Below are positions 16,268 to 64,000 of a stretch of 64,000 bases of DNA, in pieces; the stretch's first letter is position 1; every line of letters begins with the position of its first letter. This stretch comes from Branchiostoma floridae (Eukaryota > Chordata > Leptocardii > Amphioxiformes > Branchiostomatidae), in the NCBI RefSeq assembly GCF_000003815.2, contig NC_049990.1, positions 15,133,277 to 15,197,276 on the forward strand, read 5' to 3'. The notes under the pieces were generated by a model, which searched no databases, was not told the DNA's origin, and saw only the letters and a list, made by a program, of their open reading frames with translations. The position numbers and the translations under genes are program-made.

Positions 16268-17084
16268 CGATCAGCCAATTGAGATAGTTGTTTGGCGCTA
16301 CTTACAGACTGTTAACTTAGTCTAGTAATAATTACACCAGTGCCATATATTATACATGTACATGTACTGATTAAGTTGTACATGAAGTGCACATCAAACA
16401 GGATAAGACTAGTCCAGAATCCATATTATGCCCAGGGTTATTATATAAAGGGTTAATGACATGCCCTGAAGTGTATATGGTGTCATAACGCCTGATCCTT
16501 TGCTATAACTACCGAATACAACGTTTAATGAGGTTATAGGAGACTGCGGTGACTCGGTCGTTTGTTCAGTGGTACTTGTAGGAACCGGCCATGAATTATG
16601 ACACCGTGTACACATAAGAAAATTGGGTCATTAACCCTAATTTGTACCCAGGAATACACTGGGCAGGGGTAGATTCTACCCTGCTAAATCGGTACAGAAG
16701 GTGAAAACTCAGGGTGAATGAGCTCAAAAGGTTCCTAGTGATTTTACTTTGCTAGAAAGAAAAGCTTGTTTGTTACACAAAAGTGTTTACTCTCCAGACA
16801 TATTAGATGGATTGGTTGGTTGGCCTGAAATCAATTTGCACAAGATAAATGCACCTTTTAGTTCATTGGAAATGATCTGCAAGAGACGTGCACAGTTTAT
16901 AAACTTCATATTGTGATGTATTAGTAAATTTCAATAGATCATTGTTTAAAACTTAGAACCATGTTTTTCTGCCCAAAAGTCAAATGTGGTCTGTTGGTAG
17001 GTTGTCTGTTCCTATAACCTATATGGTTAACACCAAAAAAAGTGTACTGGGCTCGGGTATGATGGTAGATTAGCAGATGGGTTG
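16268..17084. other. Non-coding, unassigned
   Basis: Includes a diffuse inverted pair (CCAGGGTTATTATATAAAGGGTTAATGA near 16430 against GGGTCATTAACCC near 16624). No gene seen. Confidence 0.4.
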
Positions 17085-17930: not shown

Positions 17931-18179
17931 GTCATTGCCATTCTGGGTGAAACTCTTTCCCACTTTGACGACGATGGTCTCATCCCTGCGTTTGGATTTG
18001 GCGATGCCTCGACTTCTGACAAGCGAGTGTTTCCCTTCAAGGAGTTCGGCTGTTGTGATGGTTTCACTGATGTGTTACAGTGTTATAACCTGATCACGCC
18101 CAGAGTCAAGCTCAGTGGGCCCACAAACTTCGCTCCACTGATATATCAGGCAATAGACATAGTCAAGCAAACTAAAGCG
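17931..18179 (+). CDS. vWA domain exon, copine/RGLG-type protein
   Basis: Exon of 249 bp, phase 0 at both ends, with acceptor TCCTGTCAG/GTC and donor GCG/GTAAGT. It encodes VIAILGETLSHFDDDGLIPA, then FGFGDASTSDKRVFPF, then ITPRVKLSGPTNFAPLIYQA. This is the middle of the copine-type von Willebrand A domain (the GFGD and GPT-F-AP metal-site loop region), very close to plant RGLG and metazoan copine-like proteins that bind Ca2+ or substrates through a MIDAS fold. The exon with the first MIDAS motif (DxSxS) should lie upstream and was not found in the window. Confidence 0.85.
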
Positions 18180-18478
18180 GTAAGTTCATGTTGAGATGCT
18201 ATCTTGTTGTATTGTAGAGTAAAGTCATGTAGTAATGGGATAGTGGGACCTACTAAGATAATTCACACGTGAGTGATAATTTGAGTTATAGGGCCTACTA
18301 AGATAATGTGATAACGTGTGTTAATGTGGTGAGTTATACTGCAGGGCATACAAATATAATGTGAGTAATGATGTGTTGAGTTTATTGGGCATACCAAAAT
18401 AATGCGAGTGATAATGTGTGAAGCCGTTCATTTTCTGAATCTTATATATACATATATTTCATACATGAATAGCTAGGA

Positions 18479-18914
18479 GGAGAGAGAATTCTTATTACAC
18501 AACCGGTAGGTACTTACATTGCTTACGTTTTGATACGTCTATGTAGGTTAAACATCCAGGTAATAAGATATACCAAAAAGTAGTTACTCAAGCAACTGGA
18601 TATGGTTTTGGAAACGGTCAGACGTTTCGGATAGAATCCACTATCCTTCGTCAGTGACACTAAAGTGATCTGGAAGAAACAGGTCTTTAATACTAACTGG
18701 AGTTCTGCTTCTCACCGCTGTATGTAGCCGATGTAGGTGGCGCTTTTGCGGTGAGAAAACAGTCCCAAACGTGGCTAATCTTGTATCCCCCTACATCGGC
18801 TACCTATAGCGGTGAGAAGCAGAACTCCAGTTAGAAGCTCTGACGAAGGTGTCTGAGAGACATCGAAACGTAAGCAATGTAAGTACCTACTGGTTGTGTA
18901 ATACGAATTCTCCC
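18479..18914. mobile_element. Palindromic MITE in the vWA intron
   Basis: The outer arms GAATTCTTATTACACAACCG ... GGTTGTGTAATACGAATTC, extended by TACTTACATTGCTTACGTTT and its near-inverse, enclose a second inverted pair (18693-18736 against 18789-18834, core GGAGTTCTGCTTCTCACCGC). No coding region. Confidence 0.85.
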
Positions 18915-18995
18915 TCAGCCTATATTCTACCAACCTAATGAAAATATTTTCGGATGAATAGCTAGCATTTCTTTTTTTTTCTGTCCTGGTTAGTA

Positions 18996-19187
18996 CTGTA
19001 AATGCATTTAATTTCGCGGGAGCGGGAAAAGGGTTCTTTTCGCGGTGGTTTCAATTTCGCGGTAGCACCATGTACTGTAGTCTCTTACTGCCATGGAAAA
19101 ATGTTCGCGGTGGTTTTAATTTCGCGGTGAAGTGTCCACCGTAAAACCGCGAACATAAATCCATCGCGAATATTTCTGCATTTACAG
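18996..19187. mobile_element. 192-bp TA-flanked MITE that ends at a splice acceptor
   Basis: The ends CTGTAAATGCA and TGCATTTACAG are perfect 11-bp inverted repeats flanked by TA on both sides (18994-18995, 19188-19189). The interior has repeated TTTCGCGG words. The flanking TA duplication suggests a Tc1/mariner-type origin. The last two bases, AG, are the acceptor of the following exon. Confidence 0.85.
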
Positions 19188-19496
19188 TATCACATCCTGG
19201 TGATTGTTGCTGACGGCCAAGTCACCAGCGAGCACGCCACCCGTAATGCCATCGCCGAGGCGTCCAAGTACGCCCTGTCCATCCTCCTGGTGGGGGTGGG
19301 GGATGGACCATGGGACACCATGCAGGACTTTGATGACAAACTTCCCAGCAGGCTGTTTGATAACTTCCAGTTCGTTGATTTTCACCAAGCCCGTGCGACC
19401 GCTAAGAACCCCGACACGGCGTTCGCTGTCCAGGCACTGATGGAGATCCCTGATCAGTTCAAGGCAATCAGGCAGCTGGGATATCTGGACAGCTAG
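19188..19496 (+). CDS. Last exon of the copine/RGLG-type vWA protein
   Basis: 309 bp ending in TAG. It continues in phase 0 from 18179 and encodes [40 protein letters not shown], then [11 protein letters not shown] and [18 protein letters not shown]. These are the C-terminal copine/RGLG vWA signatures ([27 protein letters not shown]). The protein ends about five residues after the vWA domain, so no RING domain follows as it does in plant RGLG. Only 137 and 21 bp separate the exon from neighbouring transposons. The single-residue joint KA/YH agrees with the family. Confidence 0.88.
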
Positions 19497-21903: not shown

Positions 21904-22592
21904 GTGAGTGTTCGTTATCTTATCCTGACGGCTTCTGCCCATTCTGTCTCTTCTTTTCAACGCCATCCGCGTCAGACAAGTCCTCTGTACAAACAAGCGG
22001 ATTTCCCTGGCTGTACAATCGGCTCAGACACGGTCAACGACAGCTTTGTCGAACTGTTGGACAACAACCAGTGAGTGTTCGTTATCTTATATCCTGACGG
22101 CTTCGGCCCAGTCTGTATCTTCGTATTAACGACATCCGCGTCAGACAAGTCTTCAATACAAACTAAAGGATTTTGATTCGTTTCCTTGGCTGTACAATCG
22201 GCTCAGACATGGTCAACGGTAGCTTTGGCGAACTGTTGGACAACAATCAGTGAGTGTTCATTATCTTATATTCTGGCGGCTTCGGCCCAGTTTGTACCTT
22301 TTTATCAACGCCATCCGCGTCAGACAAGTCCTTTGTACAAACAAATGGATTTCCCTGGCTTTACAATCGGCTCAGACATGGTCAACGACAGCTTTGGCGA
22401 ATTGTTGGACAAAAATCAGTGAGTGTTCGTTATCTTATGTCCTGACGGCTTCTGCCCAGTCTGTATCTTCTTATCATCCGCGTCCGACAAGTTTTCGGTA
22501 CAAACAAGAGGATTCTGAGTCGTTTTCTTGGCTGTAAAATCGACTTAGACATGGTCAACGACAGCTTTGGCAAACTGTTGGACAAAAATCAG
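21904..22592 (+). repeat. Tandem array of about 172-bp units repeating the GPCR start region
   Basis: Four units start at 21904, 22071, 22250 and 22419 with GTGAGTG(T)TC. Each ends in a copy of GTCAACGACAGCTTTGG followed by GAACTGTTGGACA. Copies ending near 22249 and 22418 have ATG at the position of the GPCR start and are followed by GTGAGT, a splice-donor match. The first copy has ACG instead. The last copy lacks the GTGAGT and runs on into the GPCR ORF. Confidence 0.9.
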
Positions 22593-23729
22593 TCATCTGT
22601 TCCCGAATTTGACGGGTTGATTCCCTGCTATCGGTGGTACGTACAGAACCAAACTGTGCCGTACGAACAAGCTCACGAAGCCTGTTCTGTGTATGATTTT
22701 GTTGAGATGGGGACAGGGATAGACATAATCTTTTGGCTGACAGGGATCTTCATAATCACCAGTAATCTTATGGTCCTCTTGGGAATGATCGCAACACGGA
22801 AGCGCCTAAAACCAATTTGCTTCTTCTTAGCAAATCTGGCAATGTCGGACCTGTTGAGTGGGGTTGCACTTCTGTATCGCACCGAAGGCGATGTGTTTCA
22901 CAGTGTGAAGTACGGCTTTATGATGACTTTTGTTGATTTAATGACATTCACGCAGATGATTTCGGCATCAGCTCTATCCATATTGTCTGTGAACGGTTGC
23001 CTCGCAGTATGCCATCCCATATTCTTCCGCGCCCATGCCGGCAGTATCAAACGCCTAACGTACTTTGCTATGGGTTTTTCGTGGATTGGTTTTGCCCTCC
23101 TTGCCTTTTCTCCCAGTATGGGTTGGAACTGTTTAGACATGCAAACTTTGATCACTGGAAAGTGCATCAAATATTACCCCATGGTATTCTTTATCATGAC
23201 AATATCCATAATGTTTGTCCTTGGTAGCATCATGCTGTTCACAAACATCGTTGTGTACATAGTTATCAAACGGAAACAGAAAAACAGACCTGATCAGTCA
23301 AACACACCCCAAATCCCCAAGAGGAATGATCCTAGACAGAACAGTAAGAGTGTTGATCAGGAAACGAGTAGGAAATTTGAAGAAAGTGTACAGAGGGCAA
23401 AAACAACAATGCTACATATTGTGGTAGTGTTCATCTTCTGGCTGATAACATTTATGGTCATCCCCATATGTAATGCCTATAGAGACATGTGCCCTCGTAT
23501 GAATGTTGTAGTCGCAGCAGTATGTTTGAGCTCAGCTTTCAACCCGATTGCAACTGTCATGCGTACACCTCCATTGAGAAGGGCACTCCGGCAAAAACTG
23601 AGCGATGTCTACCGGATGTTTGCAACCGTGGTACGGGAAAATCCACAAGACGAGCAACTGGAACTTGAAAATGTTGCACGCCTTCAAGATGGCACCACCA
23701 CACAAGCACAAGAAGTCTCGCACCTTTGA
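22551..23729 (+). CDS. Class A GPCR, lysophospholipid/cannabinoid-like (MECA group)
   Basis: Single-exon receptor of 392 residues with seven hydrophobic segments at about 57-82, 88-110, 122-152, 168-192, 210-240, 286-308 and 316-338. TM1 has N72 (TSN). TM2 has LANLAMSD with D100. There is no Cys at the start of TM3, and extracellular loop 2 has GWNC with a second Cys (C205), the arrangement of S1P/LPA/cannabinoid-type receptors. TM6 has FWLITFMVIP. N-terminal N-Q-S and N-Q-T are possible glycosylation sites. The DRY position reads NGC (148-150) and NPxxY reads NPIAT, so both activation motifs are altered. The ATG at 22551 is the first in frame but lies in the tandem-repeat unit, so a longer spliced N-terminus is possible. 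Confidence 0.85.
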   Translation: MVNDSFGKLLDKNQSSVPEFDGLIPCYRWYVQNQTVPYEQAHEACSVYDFVEMGTGIDIIFWLTGIFIITSNLMVLLGMIATRKRLKPICFFLANLAMSDLLSGVALLYRTEGDVFHSVKYGFMMTFVDLMTFTQMISASALSILSVNGCLAVCHPIFFRAHAGSIKRLTYFAMGFSWIGFALLAFSPSMGWNCLDMQTLITGKCIKYYPMVFFIMTISIMFVLGSIMLFTNIVVYIVIKRKQKNRPDQSNTPQIPKRNDPRQNSKSVDQETSRKFEESVQRAKTTMLHIVVVFIFWLITFMVIPICNAYRDMCPRMNVVVAAVCLSSAFNPIATVMRTPPLRRALRQKLSDVYRMFATVVRENPQDEQLELENVARLQDGTTTQAQEVSHL

Positions 23730-48245: not shown

Positions 48246-49582
48246 GGCGCGGTCATCACGTGTGCCATGTGATCGTCGTACGATTGACGTTGATGCCATA
48301 GGATTTTAGGCAAGCTGTGACAAAACCTGAACCACGGACAAGACAGCCTTTTATGTAGCGAGACAGGTGAACGACAAATGCATGGCTGACACCACCCCCG
48401 CCCTCCGTAAATGCCCTACGTAAAGCTGGGGGCACAACTCGCCGTACTTGCAAGTGCGTGTTGCCTACGTGCCAAAACGTGGACAATCTTCTTGGATCCG
48501 TAAGTGGTAAGTACCGCCTCCGTATAATCACGTAGGGAATCCAACGGATTTTGGAGCACGCCGTATAATTTTACATGCAGGCAAAACTCTGTGTGCCATC
48601 GGGACACCTTGCGCAACCGTGCGAGTGACGTGCGTTGACGTCCTCCCATCCTGCTCTTGTTCAGGCGAGTTCCGTACACAACCCGACATGTCTGAGTTCC
48701 AGCTCGAGCTGGTGTAAAACGTTTTGCTGCGGCATGGTGGCATCTCTGCCGAACTGTTCTGTAGTTTTGATCCTGACCAGTTCTTGCCAGACAGACCGGC
48801 CGATGTCGCTGCCTCCTCCCCCATTTCATTCGCCCTGCTGGAGCAACCGTTCTGACGAGCTGTCCTGTTCCCAGTTTGACCCGTTCCTGGTAGACCACAT
48901 CATGCATTATCTTCCTGCATTTTTAGTTTGTTTCTCGTTTATGGAAGTATTGATCGTTTTGATCAATTTAACTCGCATGTTTTTATGTAGCATCTCTACT
49001 AGTTTTTCTTTACTATCTTGGAGCCTGTTCCCTAGCTTGATGTAACCAAGGAGGTTATATTTTTCATGTCTTTGAAAGTTTGATGTAACGCTGTTTGTAT
49101 GTATTTTCTTGTTACAAGAAACTCTTTATTATTGTCTTGTTCGTTTTCTGACTTTCTTTCATGATCGTAAGAATTTCCTTTGCTTATGTTATGAATAAAG
49201 ATGTTCAGTAACATACTAGTAGGTTGATTTGCTGTTTCCCTTTTTGTTAATTCTTTAATTGCTTTTATTTGCATGAGAAAGGTGGGCGTCTCCAACTTAG
49301 TCAATTTATTCGTTGGTTGGTACACCCCTACCCCAAGGGAGACCATTCAGTTGAATGGTGGGCGTCTCCAACTTAGTCAATTGTGTTCGAAGTTTATTGC
49401 GTCATAATGATTCCTTTCTGTTGATGTATACATGAGTGGTTGGTGTGACTTCTTTTCTGTGTGTTATTTTACCGGACATTGTGCAATACTAGTAGTACCT
49501 GCGATCACAGGTTAGTGATTTGTGTGCGTGTGTTGGGTCATGGAAAGCGTGACTGGTATAGCTCTTTTGTGAGGATGTGGGT
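48246..49582. other. Spacer between the ANK gene and the histone cluster
   Basis: 48416-48907 is open on the minus strand (163 codons) and 48635-49045 is open on the plus strand, but neither has a domain I can name. GGGGGCACAACTCGCCGTAC near 48427 looks like a DNA-transposon end. A GTGGGCGTCTCCAACTTAGT word occurs twice (about 49280 and 49355). Unassigned. Confidence 0.35.
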
Positions 49583-49598
49583 GGCCTTGAAAAAGGCC
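49583..49598 (-). terminator. Histone 3' stem-loop (H2B type)
   Basis: On the minus strand GGCCTTTTTCAAGGCC, a 6-bp stem with a TTTC loop, 25-40 bases after the H2B stop. A CACAAAAGAGCT purine-rich element (U7 snRNA target) follows. Directs cleavage without polyadenylation. Confidence 0.95.
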
Positions 49599-49622
49599 GG
49601 GGTTATAGCTTGAGCCGTAGGT

Positions 49623-49985
49623 CTACTTGGAGCTGGTGTACTTGGTGACTGCCTTGGTGCCCTCGCTGACGGCGTGCTTGGCCAGCTCGCCCGGTAGCAG
49701 GAGTCGCACGGCGGTCTGGATCTCGCGGCTGCTGATGGTGGAGCGCTTGTTGTAGTGAGCCAGACGAGAAGCCTCGGCGGCGATGCGCTCGAAAATGTCG
49801 TTGACGAAGGAGTTCATGATGCCCATGGCCTTGCTAGAGACACCGGTGTCGGGGTGCACCTGCTTCAGCACCTTGTAGATGTAGACACCGAAGGTTTCCC
49901 TTCTCTTTCTCCTCCTTCCCCGCTTCTTGTCTCCGGCGGGCCTGGCTTTGCCAGCTTTCTTAGCAGCTTTTCCACTTGGCGGCAT
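49623..49985 (-). CDS. H2B: Histone H2B (copy 1)
   Basis: 120 residues. It starts [20 protein letters not shown], then the histone fold [39 protein letters not shown] and the C-terminal helix [20 protein letters not shown] ending KYTSSK. It pairs with H2A in nucleosomes. Intronless, divergent from H2A at 50250 with a shared 264-bp promoter. The pair is inverted relative to the other H2A/H2B pairs in the cluster. Confidence 0.98.
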
Positions 49986-50624
<639 letters not shown>

Positions 50625-50650
50625 GATCCAGACGGAGAGATTTAAACCCC

Positions 50651-50666
50651 GGCCCTTTTCAGGGCC
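50651..50666 (+). terminator. Histone 3' stem-loop (H2A copy 1)
   Basis: GGCCCTTTTCAGGGCC, followed by CTCAAAAGAACTG (U7 element). Confidence 0.97.
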
Positions 50667-50904
50667 ACCCAAATCCTCTCAAAAGAACTGTATCATGATC
50701 ACCAAAATAAGCTTTACATATGAGCCATTGTATAAGAAAACTAAATACAGAAAATACATGCGTGTTTGAAATTAATTAACCCCCCCCCCCCCCGTCAACA
50801 CACACACTTTTTAAACAGAGTGACTTATTACCCGCCTCTCTCAGAATTGAGCTAAATTCAGAAACATAATTCTCAATTTCTGCCGCAGATGTTATGTTGT
50901 TAGA

Positions 50905-51527
50905 GTCCTTTAGAGCAACTAATCGTTTTACAATGTCGGGCTGACTGAGAGAAAGAAGAAATGTCAGCAGAATTCTCGTTCCAGTGAAAATGTTTAGGAA
51001 GAGGCCTGGTGTGTGAGCTTTTATATTTTTCCTGAAAAGTATGTATTGGTGGTTTTGAGCGAATTAATGTAGATATCATACAATGATCAGAGAATACTGT
51101 TAAAGGATTGACACGGAATGATAAAATTTGCTGGAGAAAGGACTTACTACAAATCATTAAATCAACTGTGCTGCTGCCATTTGGTTGGTGACACGTGAAT
51201 TTTCCCTGTAGGTCACCGACAACTCTACCATTTAATATTCTAAGATTTGCTTGAATACACAAGTCTGTGATTAGTCTACCGAATTTGTTGGGAGAAACTT
51301 TGTCCATGTGTTGTCTGTCAGTGAAGTATGGGGAGCTGTCGGAATCGTCGTCAATATGAGAATCGGTTGTGTAATCAGGTAGATTTCCGAGACGGGCATT
51401 AAAATCACCACCTAATAAAACGTACCCGACGGAGCTGAATTTAGAGATTTCATCTTCTAAAGTGTCTATAATATGTTTTTCTGAATGTTTGTGAGCAGTG
51501 GATGCTCCGGGGCTAAAATACAATGTA
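50905..51527 (-). mobile_element. LINE endonuclease-domain fragment
   Basis: The minus strand reads LLGGDFNARLGNLPDYT, FTCHQPNGSSTVDLMICS and VFSDHCMISTLIRS. These are the GDFNAR, S-xx-DxxL and SDH motifs of the apurinic-type endonuclease of CR1/Jockey-type LINEs. The upstream part is cut at a C-run (51528) and the RT domain is absent, so it is an internal fragment rather than a usual 3' end. Confidence 0.85.
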
Positions 51528-51589
51528 AGACCCCCCCCCCCCCGCCCCCTCACACACACGCACACACTTGCCCCCAAGAGTATATAGAA

Positions 51590-51965
51590 AGCGATGAATG
51601 AATGAATGAAGACCTTTAATGTAGATACATAAAACGACAATTGACACATTAGATAAGTGAAATATATTCAATATCTACCAACAAAACAACTAACGAAAGA
51701 ACACACGCTATCATGCTCAGAGTATCGTTACAGAAGACGTCGCCGATATTGACGATATTAATGAATGAATGACCTTTATTGTACATTTGTGCTCAAACAA
51801 GCTAAGTACAGGTCGTAGCGCTAGTGATAAGGTACAATTTTGACAAAAAATGTATCTTAATTTATCAACCCAAAACTTGATTGTGCAGAAATGTATCTCG
51901 TTTAAACTACTACACGTGCACATCACTTGAAATGTCTTCTTGTAGCCAATAGCCATTCTTTAGTA
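51590..51965 (-). repeat. LINE 3' tails (two)
   Basis: GAATGAATGAATGAAGACCT followed by TTAATGTAGATAC (51592) and AATGAATGAATGACCTTTAT followed by TGTACATTTGTGC (51763) are the 3' ends of CR1-like LINEs in minus orientation. Confidence 0.75.
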
Positions 51966-51966
51966 T

Positions 51967-52455
51967 TCAAGGTAGCAGAACACAGTTTTCGGCCTATGAG
52001 GATTTCTATAGTTAAGGGCCTCAAGGTGACTAGCTTCGACGCAATGAAAAATATAGTAGGGTGCACTTTTGGAATACCAAAATCGGATATGTTTGAGTTG
52101 AAGGTACAAGCCACAATATATTAAAAAACAAAAAAATACTGTCGGCGTATCGTCTTCTCACGCCCTCTTTGAAATGCCCCTCTGCGGAGGTCACAGAACT
52201 GCAGCCGGCTCACGCTAGAATGGCAGTTGCGTAATGGAGCGCATTTATACACAAAATAGAAAACTTTCACAATCCAAACCATGCAGTCTCAGAGTCGACA
52301 CCTTCCGTGACCACGTAGCAGAGGTTATATCTGGCTGCCCCTCAAATAAGGCTTTTTACCTCTCCTTCAACAAGTTTATCCGTACTATTTTATGTACCCG
52401 CGTCATACACCCCGGGGTTCGCCCACTAATACTGTGTTCTGCTACCTTGAACGAA
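51967..52455. mobile_element. Divergent copy of array unit A, reversed
   Basis: The ends AAGGTAGCAGAACACAGTTT and ACTGTGTTCTGCTACCTT are inverted repeats. The interior matches unit A of the 32-35 kb array in reverse orientation (ATAGTAGGGTGCA, GTTAAGG, TTGAAG/TGAGGTACAAGC). The sequence continuing to about 52700 (CAAGGTCA-like, GGCACCTGCCACTAGG) is related to unit B. Confidence 0.8.
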
Positions 52456-52849
52456 CTTGACCTTGGATTTTTTTTCGTTCAGACAACAAAACTAGTAAAG
52501 ATGGAAACTTCTGCCAATTAACTTTCCCCACTTTCAAGCGGTTGCTGAGATTTCGGCAACTTTATACTTTGGCACCTGCCACTAGGTAGGCCCCGTACAG
52601 AGCTTATAGAACGGGCCATTTAGTGGTCTCATTATCTGATCAAATTCACTATTCTGGCTGCTCTTTTCATTAAAACGGAGACAATCTGTGTCTGTTGTTA
52701 CGTTAGGAGTGATTTAGGGTCAGATTCAAGGTTAGTTGCCGCAGAAAAAGGGGGGGGGGTGCGGGTTTCGGGCCAAAGGCGCTTTCACACTAAATCCCAT
52801 AGTTAAGCATAAAACGTGCCGAGCTTGCTGCAAAAATCGGATCCTGGAG

Positions 52850-53433
<584 letters not shown>

Positions 53434-53460
53434 GGAGGATCAGAACAAGATCGACAACCC

Positions 53461-53476
53461 GGCCCTTTTCAGGGCC
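53461..53476 (+). terminator. Histone 3' stem-loop (H3 copy 1)
   Basis: GGCCCTTTTCAGGGCC, followed by CCCAGAAAGATC (U7 element). Confidence 0.97.
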
Positions 53477-53683
53477 ACCTACATATCCCAGAAAGATCTA
53501 TATCGTTCACGTTTCTTGCAACTTTTGAATCCCTGGTACACAGTTTACACGTCCCCCCATCCCCCTCATACCAATCAGTCGACAGGGGATTAAATCAGCA
53601 CTTGTGAACAAATAGACTCACAACACCACAACAACCAAGCCATCAAAGAAAACAAAAAATAAACTCGTTTTCCACGATTTAAT

Positions 53684-53741
53684 GAATGAATGAATGAAGA
53701 CCTTTATTGCACATTTTTGCCCCACTGGGCTAAGTACAGGC
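53684..53741 (-). mobile_element. Very short LINE 3'-end insertion behind H3
   Basis: GAATGAATGAATGAAGACCT followed by TTATTGCACATTTTTGCCCC and CTGGGCTAAGTACAGG. The paralogous position behind the other H3 (62578-62582, GATTTAATCATGCG) lacks these 58 bases, so filled and empty sites are both in the window. Confidence 0.85.
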
Positions 53742-54117
53742 CATGCGTTCCTGACCGCGAAAATACAACGTACACTCTCGACGTGTTTTTTTTTTTTCTC
53801 GTGCTCTCCGACTACGCGTACATATAATGTAGAGGTATGTCAGGTAGCAGGAAATGGCACACTTGTAAGAAAGCTATATTGCGGTCATATCTGACGTGAC
53901 CAGTCTTGCTCACAAACGTCATGCTCAAGGTTGTCTGTCAGGAATTATACAATAGATACAGATTTGTTTTTGTTTTGGTGTGTGTGTTGGCGGGGGGAGG
54001 GTATATAAATTTCATACACGCATGTATTTTCTTTCTTAGTTTTCTTATAGAATGGCTCATAATTATGTAAAGCTTATTTTGATGATCATGATACAGTTCT
54101 TTTGAGAGGATGTGGGT

Positions 54118-54133
54118 GGCCCTGAAAAGGGCC
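54118..54133 (-). terminator. Histone 3' stem-loop (H2A copy 2)
   Basis: Minus-strand GGCCCTTTTCAGGGCC, about 30 bases after the H2A stop. Confidence 0.97.
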
Positions 54134-54159
54134 GGGGTTTAAATCTCTTCGTCTGGATC

Positions 54160-54802
<643 letters not shown>

Positions 54803-55165
54803 ATGCCGCCAAGTGGAAAAGCTGCTAAGAAAGCTGGCAAAGCCAGGCCCGCCGGAGACAAGAAGCGCGGAAGGAGGAGAAAGAGAAGGGAAACCTTCGG
54901 TGTCTACATCTACAAGGTGCTGAAGCAGGTGCACCCCGACACCGGTGTCTCTAGCAAGGCCATGGGCATCATGAACTCTTTCGTCAACGACATTTTCGAG
55001 CGCATCGCCGCCGAGGCTTCTCGTCTGGCTCACTACAACAAGCGCTCCACCATCAGCAGCCGCGAGATCCAGACCGCCGTGCGACTCCTGCTACCGGGCG
55101 AGCTGGCCAAGCACGCCGTCAGCGAGGGCACCAAGGCAGTCACCAAGTACACCAGCTCCAAGTAG
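54803..55165 (+). CDS. H2B: Histone H2B (copy 2)
   Basis: Full 120-residue H2B, identical in protein to copy 1. This copy is the likely parent of the truncated H2B at 58066, which matches from its codon 27 onward. Confidence 0.98.
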
Positions 55166-55189
55166 ACCTACGGCTCAAGCTATAACCCC

Positions 55190-55205
55190 GGCCTTTTTCA
55201 AGGCC
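55190..55205 (+). terminator. Histone 3' stem-loop (H2B copy 2)
   Basis: GGCCTTTTTCAAGGCC, the H2B-specific stem variant, followed by CACAAAAGAGCT. Confidence 0.95.
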
Positions 55206-55990
55206 ACCCACATCCTCACAAAAGAGCTATACCAGTCACGCTTTCCATGACCCAACACACGCACACAAATCACTAACCTGTGATCGCAGGTACTACTAGT
55301 ATTGCACAATGTCCGGTAAAATAACACACAGAAAAGACGTCACACCAACCACTCGTGTATACATCAACAGAAAGAAATCATTATGACGCAATAAACTTCG
55401 AACACAATTGCAATGACATATGTACGTCCTTTTTGACGTTCTTTAGAACAATGCCATCGAACGACGTTGTCTTTCTCTGCAACGTAAACACACAATGCCT
55501 CAGGTTTACATGTATTTGGACAAACTTTTGGGTGCAATTTGGGTACCTTTACTTCGTTTTGTCGATGAATGAATCGAAATCCACGATGGCGAACATACAA
55601 AGTATGATTTGGGTCACCAGGTTGCATTACACCAAAAGCGAACATAGAAGGCATGATTTGGGTCATCAGGCGAGAAGGCCATCTCACCATTTTCGCGGAC
55701 TAATTTATAGTCTTCTGCCCAGCCGCAAAATTCAACACAACACAACAAACATCGCCATCCAAGTTAAAACAGACATAATCTTTAAACATTTACAACACTT
55801 GCGCACTCCCTCACATAAAAGCAACAAAAAACAACAAGAACTACTTCGTGCCCGAACTACAATTGTCCATCCAGATAGAACATCACGTTACACAGTTTTA
55901 TGACAAGAAAATGCTCTGTTTTCCCTCGAATTATCATTATTCCTCGTTGTTTGTCTTGTCGGTGGGATACGCTCAGCATGGCATTGTCTT
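55206..55990. other. H2B-H4 spacer (unit 1)
   Basis: No gene. It contains two direct copies of an AACATA-AAGTATGATTTGGGTCA type word (about 55590-55665). The same spacer follows the truncated H2B (58388-59200). Confidence 0.6.
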
Positions 55991-56471
<481 letters not shown>

Positions 56472-56506
56472 AGGACCCGACGGACTCATCATCGCAAGCA
56501 AACCCC

Positions 56507-56522
56507 GGCCCTTTTCAGGGCC
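56507..56522 (+). terminator. Histone 3' stem-loop (H4 copy 1)
   Basis: GGCCCTTTTCAGGGCC followed by CAAAAAAGAGCTG. Confidence 0.97.
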
Positions 56523-56614
56523 ACCCAAATATCCAAAAAAGAGCTGTATCTTCTCACAATACGATCGCACACATGAACACGCCTGACGTTATCAATACAC
56601 AAATGATAGTAAAG

Positions 56615-56700
56615 AATGATTGATTGAATGAATGAGTACCTTTATTGCTGAGCTTAAGAACAGAACAGATCTCAACACATTGTATATGAAAGTATCACGG
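56615..56700 (-). repeat. LINE 3' tail remnant behind H4
   Basis: TGATTGAATGAATGAGTACC followed by TTTATTGCTGAGC. Also present behind H4 copy 2 (59810), so it predates the duplication. Confidence 0.65.
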
Positions 56701-57149
56701 GTCTAGTCTGACATAGTATCGAATAAAGACAAAGTCAAACCCAAGCCGGCCATGTAAGCACTCAGCAACAACCGTGACCCCCTTCTCCGTACTGATATTT
56801 TTGTGCATTGTTAGTTCCCGAGCAATGCGTATGAAGCGTGATACGTTTTCCTTGGCTGACGTTGTTTCCGCGGCTGGTTGTCGGACTACTTTGGGTGTGT
56901 GGAAGGAGGCGTTTGAGTGAGACACAAGCGCACATGTGTGTTCTCTATGAAAGTCGAGTTTGCGTGTTATGCATTCATACAGTCACCCATTCCTTTGCAA
57001 AGTGGATGAGCCGTTGAACGTAGTCGAACGTCCGCGCTCACTTTCTCCGAAGCGTGCTTACCGAAAAGATGTCAAATATCTCAAGATCTAAGGACTACTG
57101 ACCAGCCGCTACCATGAAATTAGTAAGTCGGACGTGTGCTCCTGTACGG

Positions 57150-57355
57150 AAACCGGTCCAATGTTATGTTTGATGGCCGGGAAGTTAGAAATTTCACCGT
57201 AAAGTTAGAAAAGAAACACAAATTTCGCCGGTACGGACAATAGGACACAGACAAGCTGTCGTGTTTCCGATCACGTCCGCACCATGACTACTTGACGCCA
57301 GCCTGACAAGATGTCGGGTTCATTTGCACGTCTATCGTAGACTTGTCACGCCAGC
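57150..57355 (+). promoter_or_regulatory. H1 promoter (copy 1)
   Basis: AAACACA (the H1 box) at 57214-57220 and CCAAT at 57158-57162. No clear TATA. Copy 2 keeps the H1 box (60415-60421) but has CCAAC. Confidence 0.7.
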
Positions 57356-57931
57356 ATGTCCGCCGCAGCATCGTCCCCCAAGAAGGCCAGCAAGCCCAAG
57401 AAGGCCCCTGCAGCTCACCCGCCCACCACCGCCATGATCACGGCGGCTTTGGAATCACTCAAGGACCGCACGGGTTCTTCGTTGCCGGCCATCAAGAAGT
57501 ACATCGCCGCCAACTACAAGTTCGACGTGGAGAAGAAGTCCCACTTCATCAAGCGCGCCCTGAAAGTCTTGGTGGAGAAGGGTACCCTGCTCCAGGTGAA
57601 AGGAACCGGGGCGTCGGGATCCTTCAAAATCAACGTGGCAGCCAAGAAGGCCGCCGAGAAGGCCGCCAAGAAGACTACCAAGAAGCCGGTCAAGAAACCC
57701 GTGGCCAAGAAGGCCGCCAAACCCAAGACCACCAAGCCTAAAAAGCCCAAGGCTAAGAAGGCCACCACCCCCAAGAAGTCTGCCAAGAAGCCAGCGGCCA
57801 AGAAGTCTGCCAAGAAGACTCCGACAAAGAAACCCGCTGCCAAGAGAGCTGCCACTAAAAAGACTCCGGTAAAGAAGGCCGCCAAGAAGACGGCGCCCGC
57901 CAAGAAGGCAGCAAAGCCCAAGAAGAAGTAA
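57356..57931 (+). CDS. H1: Linker histone H1 (copy 1)
   Basis: 191 residues. A short basic N-tail, a winged-helix globular domain at about 20-95 ([58 protein letters not shown]), then a Lys/Ala/Pro tail rich in KKP, TPKK and AAKK. Intronless. Binds linker DNA at the nucleosome entry. Differs from copy 2 at several tail residues (A/T, R/K). Confidence 0.97.
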
Positions 57932-57962
57932 AGACCTGACCGTCACATTTTCTGCAAACCCC

Positions 57963-57978
57963 GGCCCTTTTCAGGGCC
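57963..57978 (+). terminator. Histone 3' stem-loop (H1 copy 1)
   Basis: GGCCCTTTTCAGGGCC followed by CACAAAAGAACTATG. Confidence 0.97.
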
Positions 57979-58026
57979 ACCCACATCCTCACAAAAGAAC
58001 TATGTCAGTCACGTCTCAAAGTTATA

Positions 58027-58065
58027 CTTATTCCACACGAATACACACTATTCGTGTGGAATAAG
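58027..58065. repeat. Perfect 17-bp inverted repeat at a duplication joint
   Basis: CTTATTCCACACGAATA, loop CACAC, then TATTCGTGTGGAATAAG. The left arm and loop exist behind H1 copy 2 (61229-61252) with small changes, without the right arm. The right arm is therefore new and leads straight into H2B codons. Confidence 0.95.
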
Positions 58066-58347
58066 AGAAGGGAAACCTTCGGTGTCTACATCTACAAGGT
58101 GCTGAAGCAGGTGCACCCCGACACCGGTGTCTCTAGCAAGGCCATGGGCATCATGAACTCCTTCGTCAACGACATTTTCGAGCGCATCGCCGCCGAGGCT
58201 TCTCGTCTGGCTCACTACAACAAGCGCTCCACCATCAGCAGCCGCGAGATCCAGACCGCCGTGCGACTCCTGCTACCTGGCGAGCTGGCCAAGCACGCCG
58301 TCAGCGAGGGCACCAAGGCAGTCACCAAGTACACCAGCTCCAAGTAG
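58066..58347 (+). pseudogene. H2B: 5'-truncated H2B
   Basis: Starts inside the H2B N-tail ([20 protein letters not shown]) and runs intact to TSSK and TAG, with its own stem-loop. It lacks promoter, start codon and about the first 27 codons. An ATG in the palindrome (58054) would give MWNK plus the H2B fold, but no promoter is visible. The histone fold itself is undamaged, so it is either a recent pseudogene or a tailless H2B. Confidence 0.92.
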
Positions 58348-58371
58348 ACCTACGGCTCAAGCTATAACCCC

Positions 58372-58387
58372 GGCCTTTTTCAAGGCC
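58372..58387 (+). terminator. Histone 3' stem-loop (truncated H2B)
   Basis: GGCCTTTTTCAAGGCC, the H2B-type stem. Confidence 0.93.
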
Positions 58388-59190
58388 ACCCACATACCCA
58401 CAAAAGAGCTATACCAGTCACGCTTTCCATGACCCAACACACGCACACAAATCACTAACCTGTGATCATCGCGGCAGGTACTACTAGTACTGCACAATGT
58501 CCGGTAAAATAACACACAGAAAAGAAGTCACACCAACCACTCGTGTATACATCAACAGAAAGAAATCATTATGACGCAATAAACTTCGAACACAATTGCA
58601 ATGACATATTTACGTCCCCACGTTCTTTAGAACAATGCGATCGAACGGCGTTGTCTTTCTCTGCAACGTAAACACACAATGCCTCGGGTTTACATGTATT
58701 TGGACAAAGTTTTGGGTGCAATTTGGGTAGCTTTACTTCGTTTTGTCGATGAAGGAATCGAAATCCCCGATGGCGAACATACAAAGTATGATTTGGCTCA
58801 CCAGGTTGCATTACACCAAAAGCGAACATAGAAGGCATGATTTGGGTCATCAGGCGAGAAGGCCATCTTACCATTTTCGCGGACTAATTTATAGTCTTCT
58901 GCCCAGCCGCAAAATTCAACACAACACAACAAACATCGCCATCCAAATAAAACGGACATATTCTTCGTACATTGTAAACACTTGCGCACTCCCTCACCTA
59001 CAACCAACAATCTAGCACACCCCAAAACAACACGAACTACTTCGTGCCCGAACTACGTTTGTCCATCCAGATAGAACATTACGTTACACAGTTTTATTAC
59101 AAGAAAATGCTCTGTTTTCCCTCGAATTATCATTATTCCTCGTTGTTTGTCTTGTCGGTGGGATACGCTCAGCATGGCATTGTCTTGCGC
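58388..59190. other. H2B-H4 spacer (unit 2)
   Basis: Close copy of 55206-55990 with small indels (for example TGATCATCGCGGCAGG against TGATCGCAGG). Confidence 0.7.
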
Positions 59191-59667
<477 letters not shown>

Positions 59668-59702
59668 AGGACCTGACGGACTCATCATCGCAAGCAAACC
59701 CC

Positions 59703-59718
59703 GGCCCTTTTCAGGGCC
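59703..59718 (+). terminator. Histone 3' stem-loop (H4 copy 2)
   Basis: GGCCCTTTTCAGGGCC. Confidence 0.97.
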
Positions 59719-60557
59719 ACCCAAATATCCAAGAAAGAGCTGTATCTTCTCACAATACGATCGCACACATGAACACGCCTGACGTTATCAATACACAAAT
59801 GATAGTAAAGAATGATTGAATGAATCAATACCTTTATTGCTGAGCTTAAGAACAGAACAGATCTCAACACATTGTATATGAATGTATCACGGGTCTAGTC
59901 TGACATAGTATCGAATAAAGACAAAGTTAAACCCAAGCCGGCCATGTAAGCACTCAGCAACAACCGTGACCCCCTTCTCTATACTGATATATTTTTTGTG
60001 AATTGTTAGTTCCTGAGAAATGCGTATGAAGTGCGATACGCTTTCCTTGGCTGACGTTGTTTCCGCAGCTGGTTGTCGGCCTACTTTGGGTGTATGGAAG
60101 CAGAAGGAGGCGTTTGAGTGAGACATAAGCGTACATGTGCTTTCTCTATGAAAGTCGAGTTTGCGTGTTATGAATTCATACAGTCACCCATTCCTTTGCA
60201 AACTGGATGAGCCGTTGAACGTAGTCGAACGCCCCGCTCACTTTTTCCGAAGCGTGCTTACCGAAAAAAATGTCAAATATCTCAAGATCTAGGGACTACT
60301 GACCAGCCGCTACCATGAAATTAGTAAGTCGGACATGTGCTCCTGTACGGAAACCGGTCCAACGTTATGTTTGATGGCCGGGAAAGGAGACATTTCACCG
60401 TAAAGTTAGAAAAGAAACACAAATTTCGCCGGTACGGACAATAGCACACAGACAAGCTGTCGTGTTTCCGATCACGTCCGCACCATGACTACTTGTACGC
60501 CAGCATGACAAGATGTCGGGTTCATTTGCACGTCTATCGCAGATTTGTCACGCCAGC

Positions 60558-61133
60558 ATGTCCGCCGCACCATCGTCCCCCAAGAAGGCCAGCAAGCCCA
60601 AGAAGGCCCCTGCGGCTCACCCGCCCACCACCGCCATGATCACGGCGGCTGTGGAATCACTCAAGGACCGCACGGGTTCTTCGGTGCCGGCCATCAAGAA
60701 GTACATCGCCGCCAACTACAAGTTCGACGTGGAGAAGAAGTCTCACTTCATCAAGCGGGCCCTGAAAGCCTTGGTGGAGAAGGGTACCCTGCTCCAGGTG
60801 AAGGGAACCGGGGCATCGGGATCCTTCAAAATCAACGTGGCAGCCAAGAAGGCGGCCGAGAAGGCCGCCAAGAAGACTACCAAGAAGCCTGTCAAGAAAC
60901 CCGTGGCCAAGAAGGCCGCCAAACCCAAGACCACCAAGCCTAAAAAGCCCAAGGCTAAGAAGGCTTCCACCCCCAAGAAGTCTACCAAGAAGCCAGCGGC
61001 CAAGAAGTCTACCAAGAAGACTCCGACAAAGAAACCTGCTGCCAAGAAAGCTGCCACCAAAAAGACTCCGGTAAAGAAGGCCGCCAAGAAGACGGCGCCC
61101 GCCAAGAAGGCGACCAAGCCCAAGAAGAAGTAG
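60558..61133 (+). CDS. H1: Linker histone H1 (copy 2)
   Basis: 191 residues, starting [16 protein letters not shown]. An in-frame ATG at 60513 would add 15 residues, but copy 1 has a stop (TAG) in that stretch, so the 60558 start is chosen. Same globular domain as copy 1 with A/V, L/V and V/A changes ([25 protein letters not shown]) and Thr-richer tail repeats. Confidence 0.97.
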
Positions 61134-61166
61134 AGACCTGACCGTCACATTGAGTCTGCAAACCCC

Positions 61167-61182
61167 GGCCCTTTTCAGGGCC
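61167..61182 (+). terminator. Histone 3' stem-loop (H1 copy 2)
   Basis: GGCCCTTTTCAGGGCC followed by CACAAAAGAAC. Confidence 0.97.
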
Positions 61183-61294
61183 ACCCACATCCTCACAAAA
61201 GAACTATGTCAATCACGTCTCAAAGTTATACATTTTCCACACGAATACACACTATCCGGCCAAATAATTGATGATAAACGAAATAAGATACAAT

Positions 61295-61470
61295 GTAAGA
61301 CGCCCCCCCCCCCCACACACACACACACAAACACAAGCACACACTCGCCCCCAAGAGTATATAGAAAGCGATGAATGAATGAATGAATGAAGACCTTTAT
61401 TGTAGATACATAAAACGACAATTGACACATTAGATAAGTGAAATATATTCAATATCTACCAACAAAACAA
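61295..61470 (-). repeat. C-run, (CA)n and LINE 3' tail
   Basis: A C-run and (CA)n, then GAATGAATGAATGAATGAAG followed by ACCTTTATTGTAG. The same block sits at 51528-51690 beside the endonuclease fragment. Confidence 0.8.
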
Positions 61471-61689
61471 CTAACGAAAGAACACACGCTATCAGAGTAT
61501 CGTTACAGAAGACGTCGCCGATATTGACGATATTAATTTATCAACCCAAAACTTGATTGTGCAGAAATGTGTCTCGTTTAAACTACTACACGTGCACATC
61601 ACTTGAAATGTCTTCTTGTAGCCAATAGCCATTCTTTAGTATTCAAGTTCAGTGCCCTTGCCACATTCTTCTGTGGGAGCCCAAAACGT

Positions 61690-62305
<616 letters not shown>

Positions 62306-62333
62306 GGAGGATCAGAACAAGATCGACAACCCC

Positions 62334-62349
62334 GGCCCTTTTCAGGGCC
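62334..62349 (+). terminator. Histone 3' stem-loop (H3 copy 2)
   Basis: GGCCCTTTTCAGGGCC followed by CCCAGAAAGATC. Confidence 0.97.
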
Positions 62350-62947
62350 ACCTACATATCCCAGAAAGATCTATATCGTTCACGGTTCTTGCAACATTTG
62401 AATCAGAATCCCTGGTACACAGTTTACACGTTCCCCCATCCCCCTCGTACTTGTTACACACAAACCAATCAGTCGACAGGGGATTAAATCAGCACTTGTG
62501 AACTAATAGACTCACAACACCACAACAACCAAGCCATCAAAGAAAACAAAAAATAAACTTCGTTTTCCACGATTTAATCATGCGTTTCTGACCTCGAAAA
62601 TACAACGTACACTCTCCACGTGTTTTTTTTTTTCTTCGTGCTCTCCGACTACGCGTACATATAATGTAGGGGTATGTCAGGTAGCAGGAAATGGCACACT
62701 TGTAAGAAAGGTATATTGCGGTCATTTCTGACGTGACCAGTCTTGCTCACAAACGTCATGCTCAAGGTTGTCTGTCAGGAATTATACAATAGATACAGAT
62801 TTGTTTTGGTGTGTGTGTTGGCGGGGGGGGGGGCCATATTGATTTCAAACACGCATGTATTTTCTGTATTTAGTTTTCTTATAGAATGGCTCATATGTAA
62901 AGCTTATTTTGGTGATCATGATACAGTTCTTTTGAGAGGATGTGGGT

Positions 62948-62963
62948 GGCCCTGAAAAGGGCC
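62948..62963 (-). terminator. Histone 3' stem-loop (H2A copy 3)
   Basis: Minus-strand GGCCCTTTTCAGGGCC. Confidence 0.97.
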
Positions 62964-62989
62964 GGGGTTTAAATCTCTCCGTCTGGATC

Positions 62990-63634
<645 letters not shown>

Positions 63635-64000
63635 ATGCCGCCAAGTGGAAAAGCTGCTAAGAAAGCTGGCAAAGCCAGGCCCGCCGGAGACAAGAAGCGT
63701 GGAAGGAGGAGAAAGAGAAGGGAAACCTTCGGTGTCTACATCTACAAGGTGCTGAAGCAGGTGCACCCCGACACCGGTGTCTCTAGCAAGGCCATGGGCA
63801 TCATGAACTCCTTCGTCAACGACATTTTCGAGCGCATCGCCGCCGAGGCTTCTCGTCTGGCTCACTACAACAAGCGCTCCACCATCAGCAGCCGCGAGAT
63901 CCAGACCGCCGTGCGACTCCTGCTACCTGGCGAGCTGGCCAAGCACGCCGTCAGCGTGAGATCGCCCGGCGGTTTCATGACATCGCTACCACCTGAGATC
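63635..64000 (+). CDS. H2B: Histone H2B (copy 3) with an altered 3' end, partial
   Basis: Identical to other H2B copies for about 107 residues up to KHAVS, then leaves the family at about 63956: after GTCAGC the sequence is GTGAGATCGCCCGG instead of GAGGGCACC. The frame stays open ([15 protein letters not shown]) to the window edge. The joint GC/GTGAGA looks like a splice donor. It may be an intron-containing H2B, a rearranged copy or an assembly joint. Confidence 0.85.

What the first reader, a model, noticed from the sequence alone, without database searches (positions are those of the whole stretch)
18994..19189. Transposon end serves as the 3' splice site of the vWA gene's last exon
The MITE 18996-19187 has perfect 11-bp inverted ends (CTGTAAATGCA / TGCATTTACAG) and a TA duplication on each side. 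The right-hand TA is the first two bases of the exon codon TAT (Tyr of [10 protein letters not shown]), and the AG acceptor is the last dinucleotide of the MITE. Either the intron boundary was moved onto a transposon or the transposon helped create it, as described for introner-like elements in other eukaryotes. The coding joint is still correct for the family.
Basis: partly seen in the sequence, partly recalled or inferred. Interest (0 to 1): 0.78.

Follow-up and report, generated by a model that had tools for sequence, protein, structure and literature searches.

The report
Transposon landed exactly on splice junction
A short transposon inserted exactly at an existing intron-exon junction of an amphioxus-like gene copy, so that the only splice signal that still gives the right protein is now the transposon's own end; related copies without the transposon show the original junction.

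Summary
In detail: a 192-bp MITE (18996-19187) with perfect 11-bp inverted ends and TA on both sides abuts the exon codon TAT. First, the sequence left of the MITE (18968-18993...CTGTCCTGGTTAG) is itself a strong acceptor. Second, two paralogs of this Copine/RGLG-like gene, on C14 and C15, have the same intron without the MITE, ending ...CTGTCCTGG(T)TAG|TATCACATCC. With MITE and one TA removed, the window is identical to C14 over 40 bases across the junction. So the MITE did not create the intron: it inserted into the TA just after the host AG, and its terminal CAG now stands where the host acceptor stood. Only that CAG gives the family's frame; the old AG gives YCKCI-stop.

Use of the MITE acceptor is inferred, not shown. 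For: exon constraint over the branch, and the paralogs' branch-point-like CTGAC reads CTAGC here. Against: the MITE acceptor scores weaker than the old one, and this copy lost the exon with the DxTxS motif, so it may be dying. The family has at least 3,457 copies; 105 acceptor-like sites were scored or read and showed no second case. A clean example of a known kind, not an introner.

The parts
18996..19187 (+). MITE, 192 bp (short variant of a family with a 208-bp consensus), 11-bp perfect terminal inverted repeats
18994..18995 (.). left TA target-site duplication (originally the first two exon bases)
   Evidence: TA flanks on both sides in 31 of 40 copies
19188..19189 (.). right TA target-site duplication, now the first two bases of exon codon TAT (Tyr)
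18968..18993 (+). ancestral host 3' splice site (polypyrimidine tract and TTAG), kept left of the MITE
   Evidence: the last 17 bases are identical to the intron end of the MITE-free C14 paralog; scores in the top 0.8% of 3,625 window AGs (recalled weights)
18962..18966 (+). CTAGC, at the place of the paralogs' branch-point-like CTGAC
19177..19187 (+). right MITE end TGCATTTACAG, whose AG gives the family reading frame (the old AG does not)
18180..19187 (+). phase-0 intron as it must be spliced for a Copine product (donor GTAAGT at 18180)
17931..18179 (+). exon A, Copine/RGLG-like vWA domain, first half
19188..19496 (+). exon B, last coding exon with stop codon
16742..16743 (.). breakpoint of a deletion of about 330 bp that removed the exon carrying GIDYTKSN (DxTxS motif), present in C14 and C15
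   Evidence: no exon-X match on C12 in a whole-genome search; exon X is 101 nt
18475..18953 (.). second insertion in the same intron, absent from C14 and C15 (ends approximate); its arms are inverted repeats
   Evidence: pair I21; alignment blocks 18428-18474 and 18954-18995 are adjacent in the paralogs

Best explanation
A TA-targeting MITE inserted, in one of three closely related copies of a Copine/RGLG-like gene, into the TA that follows the AG of an existing 3' splice site (TTAG|TATCAC became TTAG-TA-MITE-TATCAC). Target duplication put TA back at the start of the exon, and the MITE's terminal repeat happens to end in TTTACAG, so a new CAG stands directly before it. Splicing from the old donor to the MITE's CAG removes the whole element and gives an unchanged mRNA. 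I infer that this acceptor is used at least part of the time, because the old AG leads to a stop after five codons. Because both ends of the element are the same inverted repeat, either orientation would give the same CAG|TA. Shown: element, empty site, frame, family. Inferred: actual splicing and any benefit or cost to the gene copy. (The DNA-level insertion history alone I hold at about 0.97; the figure below is for the whole statement, lowered from 0.60 to 0.55 after weakened the dating.)
For: Empty site in two paralogs: C14 intron ends CTGTCCTGGTTAG|TATCACATCC and C15 ends CTGTCCTGGTAG|TATCACATCC, both without the MITE. With the MITE and one TA removed, the window is identical to C14 over 40 bases spanning the junction (17 left, 23 right) and to C15 over 26 (3 left, where C15 lacks one T, and 23 right). 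The MITE AG gives [10 protein letters not shown]; the old AG gives YCKCI-stop. Exons are constrained relative to non-coding DNA: nonsynonymous differences 6 of about 236 sites (exon B, versus C14) and 3 of about 191 (exon A, versus C15), against 141 of 968 aligned non-coding bases versus C15. dN/dS is 0.21 for exon B versus C14, 0.32 versus C15, and 0.45 for exon A versus C15. On the window's own branch 2 to 6 of these 9 changes can lie (polarised by eye with C11), against about 31 expected for the whole branch if neutral (P(6 or fewer) 5e-8). The paralogs' CTGAC, 27 nt before the last base of the C14 intron, reads CTAGC here; the only other YTNAY in 18900-18990 (A at 18938) is followed by AGs at 18960 and 18964, before the old AG.
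Against: No transcript data. By recalled consensus weights the MITE acceptor is weak (1.49; 7.5% of window AGs score as high) and the old one strong (5.12; top 0.8%); the presumably working C14 acceptor scores 2.63 and C15's 6.39, so the score is only a rough guide. No YTNAY branch point lies in the usual place in the MITE: the candidates in 19100-19187 are A19119, with an AG 12 nt after it, and A19184, too close. The copy lacks the exon with the DxTxS motif, 101 nt long, so skipping it shifts the frame. Whether constraint outlasted the insertion cannot be told: against five short relatives the MITE has 6 own substitutions in 191, which would give about 13 expected neutral changes (P 0.00016 to 0.02), but against all 39 other copies only 1 is unshared and the other five are each shared with 1 to 4 copies; at the lower bound of the first estimate about 5 are expected and the argument disappears. 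The predicted fold of the MITE pairs the new CAG with its left end CUG, which could hide it.
Confidence: 0.55

Rival explanations
1. The insertion is as described, but the old acceptor is still the one used (or the copy is silent). The MITE then lies in the last exon, the product ends YCKCI-stop, and this copy is a decaying duplicate; the neat fit of the MITE end is a coincidence without use.
For: Old acceptor much stronger by score; DxTxS exon deleted in this copy; two close copies remain on C14 and C15, although C15 carries an in-frame TAG near its end and C14 has assembly Ns in exon A.
Against: Exon A and exon B of this copy remain open and were constrained over most of the branch; the old branch-point-like motif is changed here.
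Confidence: 0.38
2. The MITE created the intron (introner-like gain).
For: The element ends in AG, and GTAAAT stands two bases inside its left end.
Against: The intron exists without the MITE in C14 and C15 with the same donor and position; the window's donor lies about 0.8 kb upstream of the element; splicing at the element's own GT and AG would leave TACT in the mRNA.
Confidence: 0.02
3. The arrangement is a polymorphism or an assembly join rather than a fixed state of the species.
For: One assembly only; no second individual was available.
Against: A clean TA duplication and a junction matching the paralogs are hard to make by misassembly. Polymorphism is compatible with the best explanation.
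Confidence: 0.05

Closest known systems
Introners (Gozashti et al. 2022, PMC9860276; section 7 and passages read)
   Same: Non-autonomous DNA transposon with inverted ends and target duplication; in some families the element carries the 3' splice site; in most families splicing leaves the mRNA length unchanged.
   Different: No intron was gained here, an existing acceptor was replaced; the donor is the old host donor; among 39 open frames next to 183 ends of other copies Pfam recognised no exon that starts at the element.
Transposon-insertion model of intron gain (review PMC3443670, 2012; passages read)
   Same: Target duplication at a splice-like site makes a coding-neutral insertion.
   Different: That model uses duplicated AGGT to make both sites; here TA is duplicated, the AG comes from the element and the intron is old.
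Splicing of Ds and dSpm elements out of maize transcripts (Purugganan and Wessler 1992; seen only as a reference entry in PMC4158355; content recalled)
   Same: An acceptor in or next to a terminal repeat lets the element be removed with RNA.
   Different: As recalled, those insertions are in exons or untranslated regions and often leave extra bases; here the insertion is at a junction and leaves none.
Amphioxus PRHOXNB intron containing MITE LanceletTn-2 (as cited in PMC5802833; passages read)
   Same: Amphioxus MITE linked to a change of gene structure.
   Different: Reported as an intron gain containing a MITE; neither the original nor the paper describing amphioxus MITEs was read (the latter not held), so sequences were not compared.

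Membership tests
MITE (non-autonomous DNA transposon with TA target duplication) | Short, non-coding, terminal inverted repeats, target duplication, many copies | tested here: met
   192 bp; 11-bp perfect ends; TA on both sides in 31 of 40 copies; 3,457 exact left ends genome-wide
MITE (non-autonomous DNA transposon with TA target duplication) | Relation to an autonomous parent (superfamily) | not tested
   No transposase with these ends was sought; Tc1/mariner-like only by TA duplication, recalled
Introner | Element constitutes a gained intron | tested here: not met
   Intron present without element in C14 and C15
Introner | Many copies of the family are introns | tested here: inconclusive
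   Sample without annotation: 183 ends of other copies gave 39 open frames of 45 codons or more; of these one passed its Pfam cut-off, and its exon begins about 60 nt after the element behind its own acceptor. Exons that Pfam does not know would be missed.
Transposon-supplied 3' splice site | Insertion precedes use: empty site known | tested here: met
Transposon-supplied 3' splice site | Transcripts spliced at the element's AG | not testable with these tools
   no transcripts available
Copine/RGLG-like vWA protein | Copine domain | tested here: met
   Pfam Copine E 1.9e-58; best solved relatives RGLG5, RGLG2, RGLG1
Copine/RGLG-like vWA protein | DxTxS metal-binding motif exon (motif name recalled) | tested here: not met
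   of 6 matches three cover that exon, on C11, C14 and C15; none on C12

The most novel reading that the evidence does not exclude
Because both inverted ends read ...TTTACAG|TA on the strand leaving the element, copies of this abundant TA-targeting family with intact ends are portable, orientation-blind 3' splice sites. An insertion at an AG|TA acceptor is then silent in mRNA but replaces the host's acceptor and its surroundings. TA-targeting MITEs with CAG ends would be a steady source of acceptor turnover that leaves protein and intron position unchanged and so escapes intron-gain surveys.
Probability: 0.15. Interest if true: 0.62.

Novelty: new member of a known kind. Interest (0 to 1): 0.42.

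Why it matters
To my knowledge (recalled) acceptor replacement by a transposon is rarely caught with the fossil acceptor, the element and MITE-free copies all in one genome. Here the steps can be read directly, and the two competing acceptors 194 bases apart make a natural test of how the spliceosome chooses between a strong old AG and a weak new CAG behind a predicted RNA hairpin. It also shows that an intron boundary can change its origin without any change in the encoded joint or the intron position.

Tried and rejected
Introner-like intron gain was rejected because C14 and C15 have the intron without the MITE. A three-way MAFFT alignment of window, C14 and C15 put the paralogs' intron end against the RIGHT end of the MITE, which on its face contradicts my reading. 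I take it as a gap-placement artefact: the flanks joined without MITE and one TA are identical to C14 over 40 bases, and blastn places window 18954-18995 and 19186 onward side by side on C14 and C15.

Dating the MITE by its own substitutions was tried and is weak: 6 of 191 against five short relatives (read by eye), but only 1 unshared against all 39 other copies. I no longer lean on it.

Search for a second case. Pattern YYYYYNYYYNNYAG|TA|CTGTAAATGCA gave 1 site, on C18, with 1 in the reversed control; its right end is degenerate and it lies beside MITE-like sequence, not an evident junction. Pattern YYNNYAG|TA|CTGTAAATGCA gave 103 sites (control 1); 100 were fetched and scored, and this pattern does not match the window's own site. 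Three of the 100 outscored the window's old acceptor (L054, L078, L092): L054 and L078 have degenerate right ends, L092 shows no evident coding exon after the element. For 13 of the 100 the three frames were read by eye without finding an obvious exon; the others were only scored. Pattern TTTTN{3,14}YAG|TA|... gave 56 matches (control 3), several overlapping, and recovered the window site; 5 further sites were fetched and read and showed none. The 39 open frames of 45 codons or more at 183 ends of other copies were scanned against Pfam. Apart from the window control the hits were one above its cut-off (L049, own acceptor about 60 nt downstream) and three weak ones (CheR_N 0.03, HGWP 0.056, PI3K_p85B 0.075).

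Paper searches: the terminal sequence letters (19 titles listed, seen as unrelated from the listing); MITE, splice site, amphioxus; introners; amphioxus MITEs; transposon acceptors; LanceleTn (none); splicing of transposons; amphioxus intron gain; MITE at exon-intron boundary. From the listings and the passages named above nothing on this case was seen; the listed papers were not otherwise read. PMC5803294 was looked at in two reference-list passages only. An exact viral-contig scan for the MITE end found nothing. Orthologs in other amphioxus species could not be reached.

Full report
Observation. The MITE at 18996-19187 is as described: CTGTAAATGCA at 18996-19006, TGCATTTACAG at 19177-19187, TA on both sides, and the exon codon TAT beginning with the right-hand TA. 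The joined product of 17931-18179 and 19188-19496 is a Copine domain (Pfam E 1.9e-58). Its nearest solved relatives are the E3 ligases RGLG5, RGLG2 and RGLG1, and the residues YH at the joint are shared with them, which suggests that the exon began with TA before any insertion.

Directly left of the MITE stands TTTCTTTTTTTTTCTGTCCTGGTTAG (18968-18993), an acceptor-like sequence in the top 0.8% of the 3,625 AGs of the window by a recalled consensus. The own genome (G000, 513 Mb, 431 contigs; the window is C12:15133277-15197276) holds 9 matches to the protein: the two window exons, close copies on C14 and C15, a single-exon relative on C11 (61% identity, 302-aa open frame) and one weak match on C6. 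C14 and C15 have the same intron with the same donor and no MITE. Their introns end CTGTCCTGGTTAG|TATCACATCC (C14) and CTGTCCTGGTAG|TATCACATCC (C15). With the MITE and one TA taken out, the window is identical to C14 over 40 bases across the junction, 17 left and 23 right, and to C15 over 26, because C15 lacks one T before its TAG. A three-way alignment without that step placed the gap differently; I judge it an artefact for the reasons given under Tried and rejected.

Order of events. The intron is older than the MITE. The element inserted into the TA that follows the host AG, duplicated TA, and left the host acceptor as a fossil inside the intron. The new CAG is the element's own last three bases. 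Both ends are the same inverted repeat, so either orientation would do the same.

Consequences for splicing. The two acceptors are 194 bases apart, not a multiple of three. Splicing to the old AG gives YCKCI-stop; splicing to the MITE's CAG gives the family sequence. The copies on C14 and C15 have CTGAC near the intron end (27 bases before the last base in C14), a good branch-point match; the window has CTAGC there. The one other YTNAY in 18900-18990 (A at 18938) is followed by AGs at 18960 and 18964, ahead of the old AG at 18992. This may weaken the old site. On the other hand, the MITE site scores poorly (1.49 against 5.12 for the old site, 2.63 for C14's and 6.39 for C15's acceptor) and has no YTNAY at a usual distance. 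The element also folds with its CAG paired to its left end (minimum free energy -73.5 kcal/mol, no shuffled control). Sequence alone therefore does not settle which AG wins.

Is the copy alive? Exon B differs from C14 by 8 synonymous and 6 nonsynonymous changes (dN/dS 0.21) and from C15 by 7 and 8 (0.32); exon A differs from C15 by 2 and 3 (0.45); C14 and C15 differ in exon B by 0 and 2. Aligned non-coding DNA differs from C15 at 141 of 968 positions. With C11 as outgroup, read by eye, two of the three exon A changes fall on the other branch and one is undecided. In exon B two of six fall on the window's branch, one on the other, and three are undecided. So 2 to 6 of 9 are on the window's branch, against about 31 expected under neutrality for the whole branch. 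That shows constraint over most of the branch. It does not show constraint after the MITE arrived: the date of the insertion rests on 6 own substitutions in 191 against five short relatives, of which only 1 is unshared when all 39 other copies are compared. Against function: a deletion of about 330 bp at 16742/16743 removed the 101-nt exon with GIDYTKSN, the DxTxS metal site of the vWA fold (motif name recalled), present on C14 and C15. A genome-wide search gave 6 matches, three of which cover that exon (C11, C14, C15), none on C12. Skipping it shifts the frame, so this copy is N-truncated or dying, perhaps starting at an ATG just before exon A (MYIVSCQ|VIAILG; C14 and C15 have a stop there).

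The family. Of 1,878 first-look candidates 40 were scored, giving 60 match rows; those 40 copies, the window's own among them, were collected. The consensus of the other 39 is 208 bp, the window copy is a 192-bp variant with 11 differences in 191 aligned positions, and TA stands on both sides in 31 of 40. AG precedes the left TA in 4 of the 40. Exact left ends number 3,457, with 0 in the control. With about 32 million TA in the genome (extrapolated from the window), random insertion would strike about 0.1 AG|TA acceptors per 1,000 such acceptors. With several thousand such acceptors in a genome of this kind (recalled guess) something like one hit is expected, so this site needs no special targeting. 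A search for a second case found none: 100 of 103 sites of one pattern were scored and 13 of them read, 5 sites of another were read, and 39 open frames at 183 element ends were scanned. These are samples without gene annotation.

Verdict. The acceptor position has been taken over by a transposon end at DNA level, in a gene copy whose health is doubtful. It works like the acceptor half of an introner but is not one, because no intron was gained. The general idea, that transposon ends can supply splice sites, is known (PMC9860276, section 7 and passages read; PMC3443670, passages read). The exact swap at a junction, with the fossil acceptor and MITE-free paralogs in the same genome, is a clean and testable example.

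Noticed in passing
window 18475-18953: A second insertion in the same intron with inverted-repeat arms (18474-18534 and 18862-18922, 90% complementary), flanked by copies of ATGAATAGCTAG and absent from the C14 and C15 paralogs.
   Followed up: partly
window 16742/16743: Deletion of about 330 bp relative to C14 and C15 that removes the exon with the DxTxS motif of the vWA domain.
   Followed up: yes
L009 (C11:23161018-23161677 and flanks): A single-exon RGLG-like copine open frame of 302 aa, 61% identical over the matched part, perhaps a retrocopy or the intronless relative of the family.
   Followed up: partly
L018-L021 (C14 near its right end, C15 near its left end): The two MITE-free paralogs lie near contig ends and share blocks up to 99% identical, with repeated tandem-like sequence around them; C15 has an in-frame TAG near the C terminus.
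   Followed up: partly
L017 (C6:14694786-14695022): A weak copine match with an acceptor-like CTAG directly before AACTACTATGTCCTG, one codon upstream of the equivalent position here; possible ancient shared intron position.
   Followed up: no
L049, C7 near 14334683: Another copy of this MITE lies about 60 nt upstream of an exon matching the GlcNAc-1 phosphotransferase regulatory domain, behind that exon's own acceptor.
   Followed up: partly
window 49378-63956: Long near-identical direct and inverted duplications with lysine-rich coding-like repeats and repeated GGCCCTTTTCAGGGCCACC hairpins, suggestive of a histone gene cluster (reading recalled).
   Followed up: no
window 22446-23729: Open frame of 427 codons with repeated upstream stretches, looks like a seven-helix receptor by eye.
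   Followed up: no
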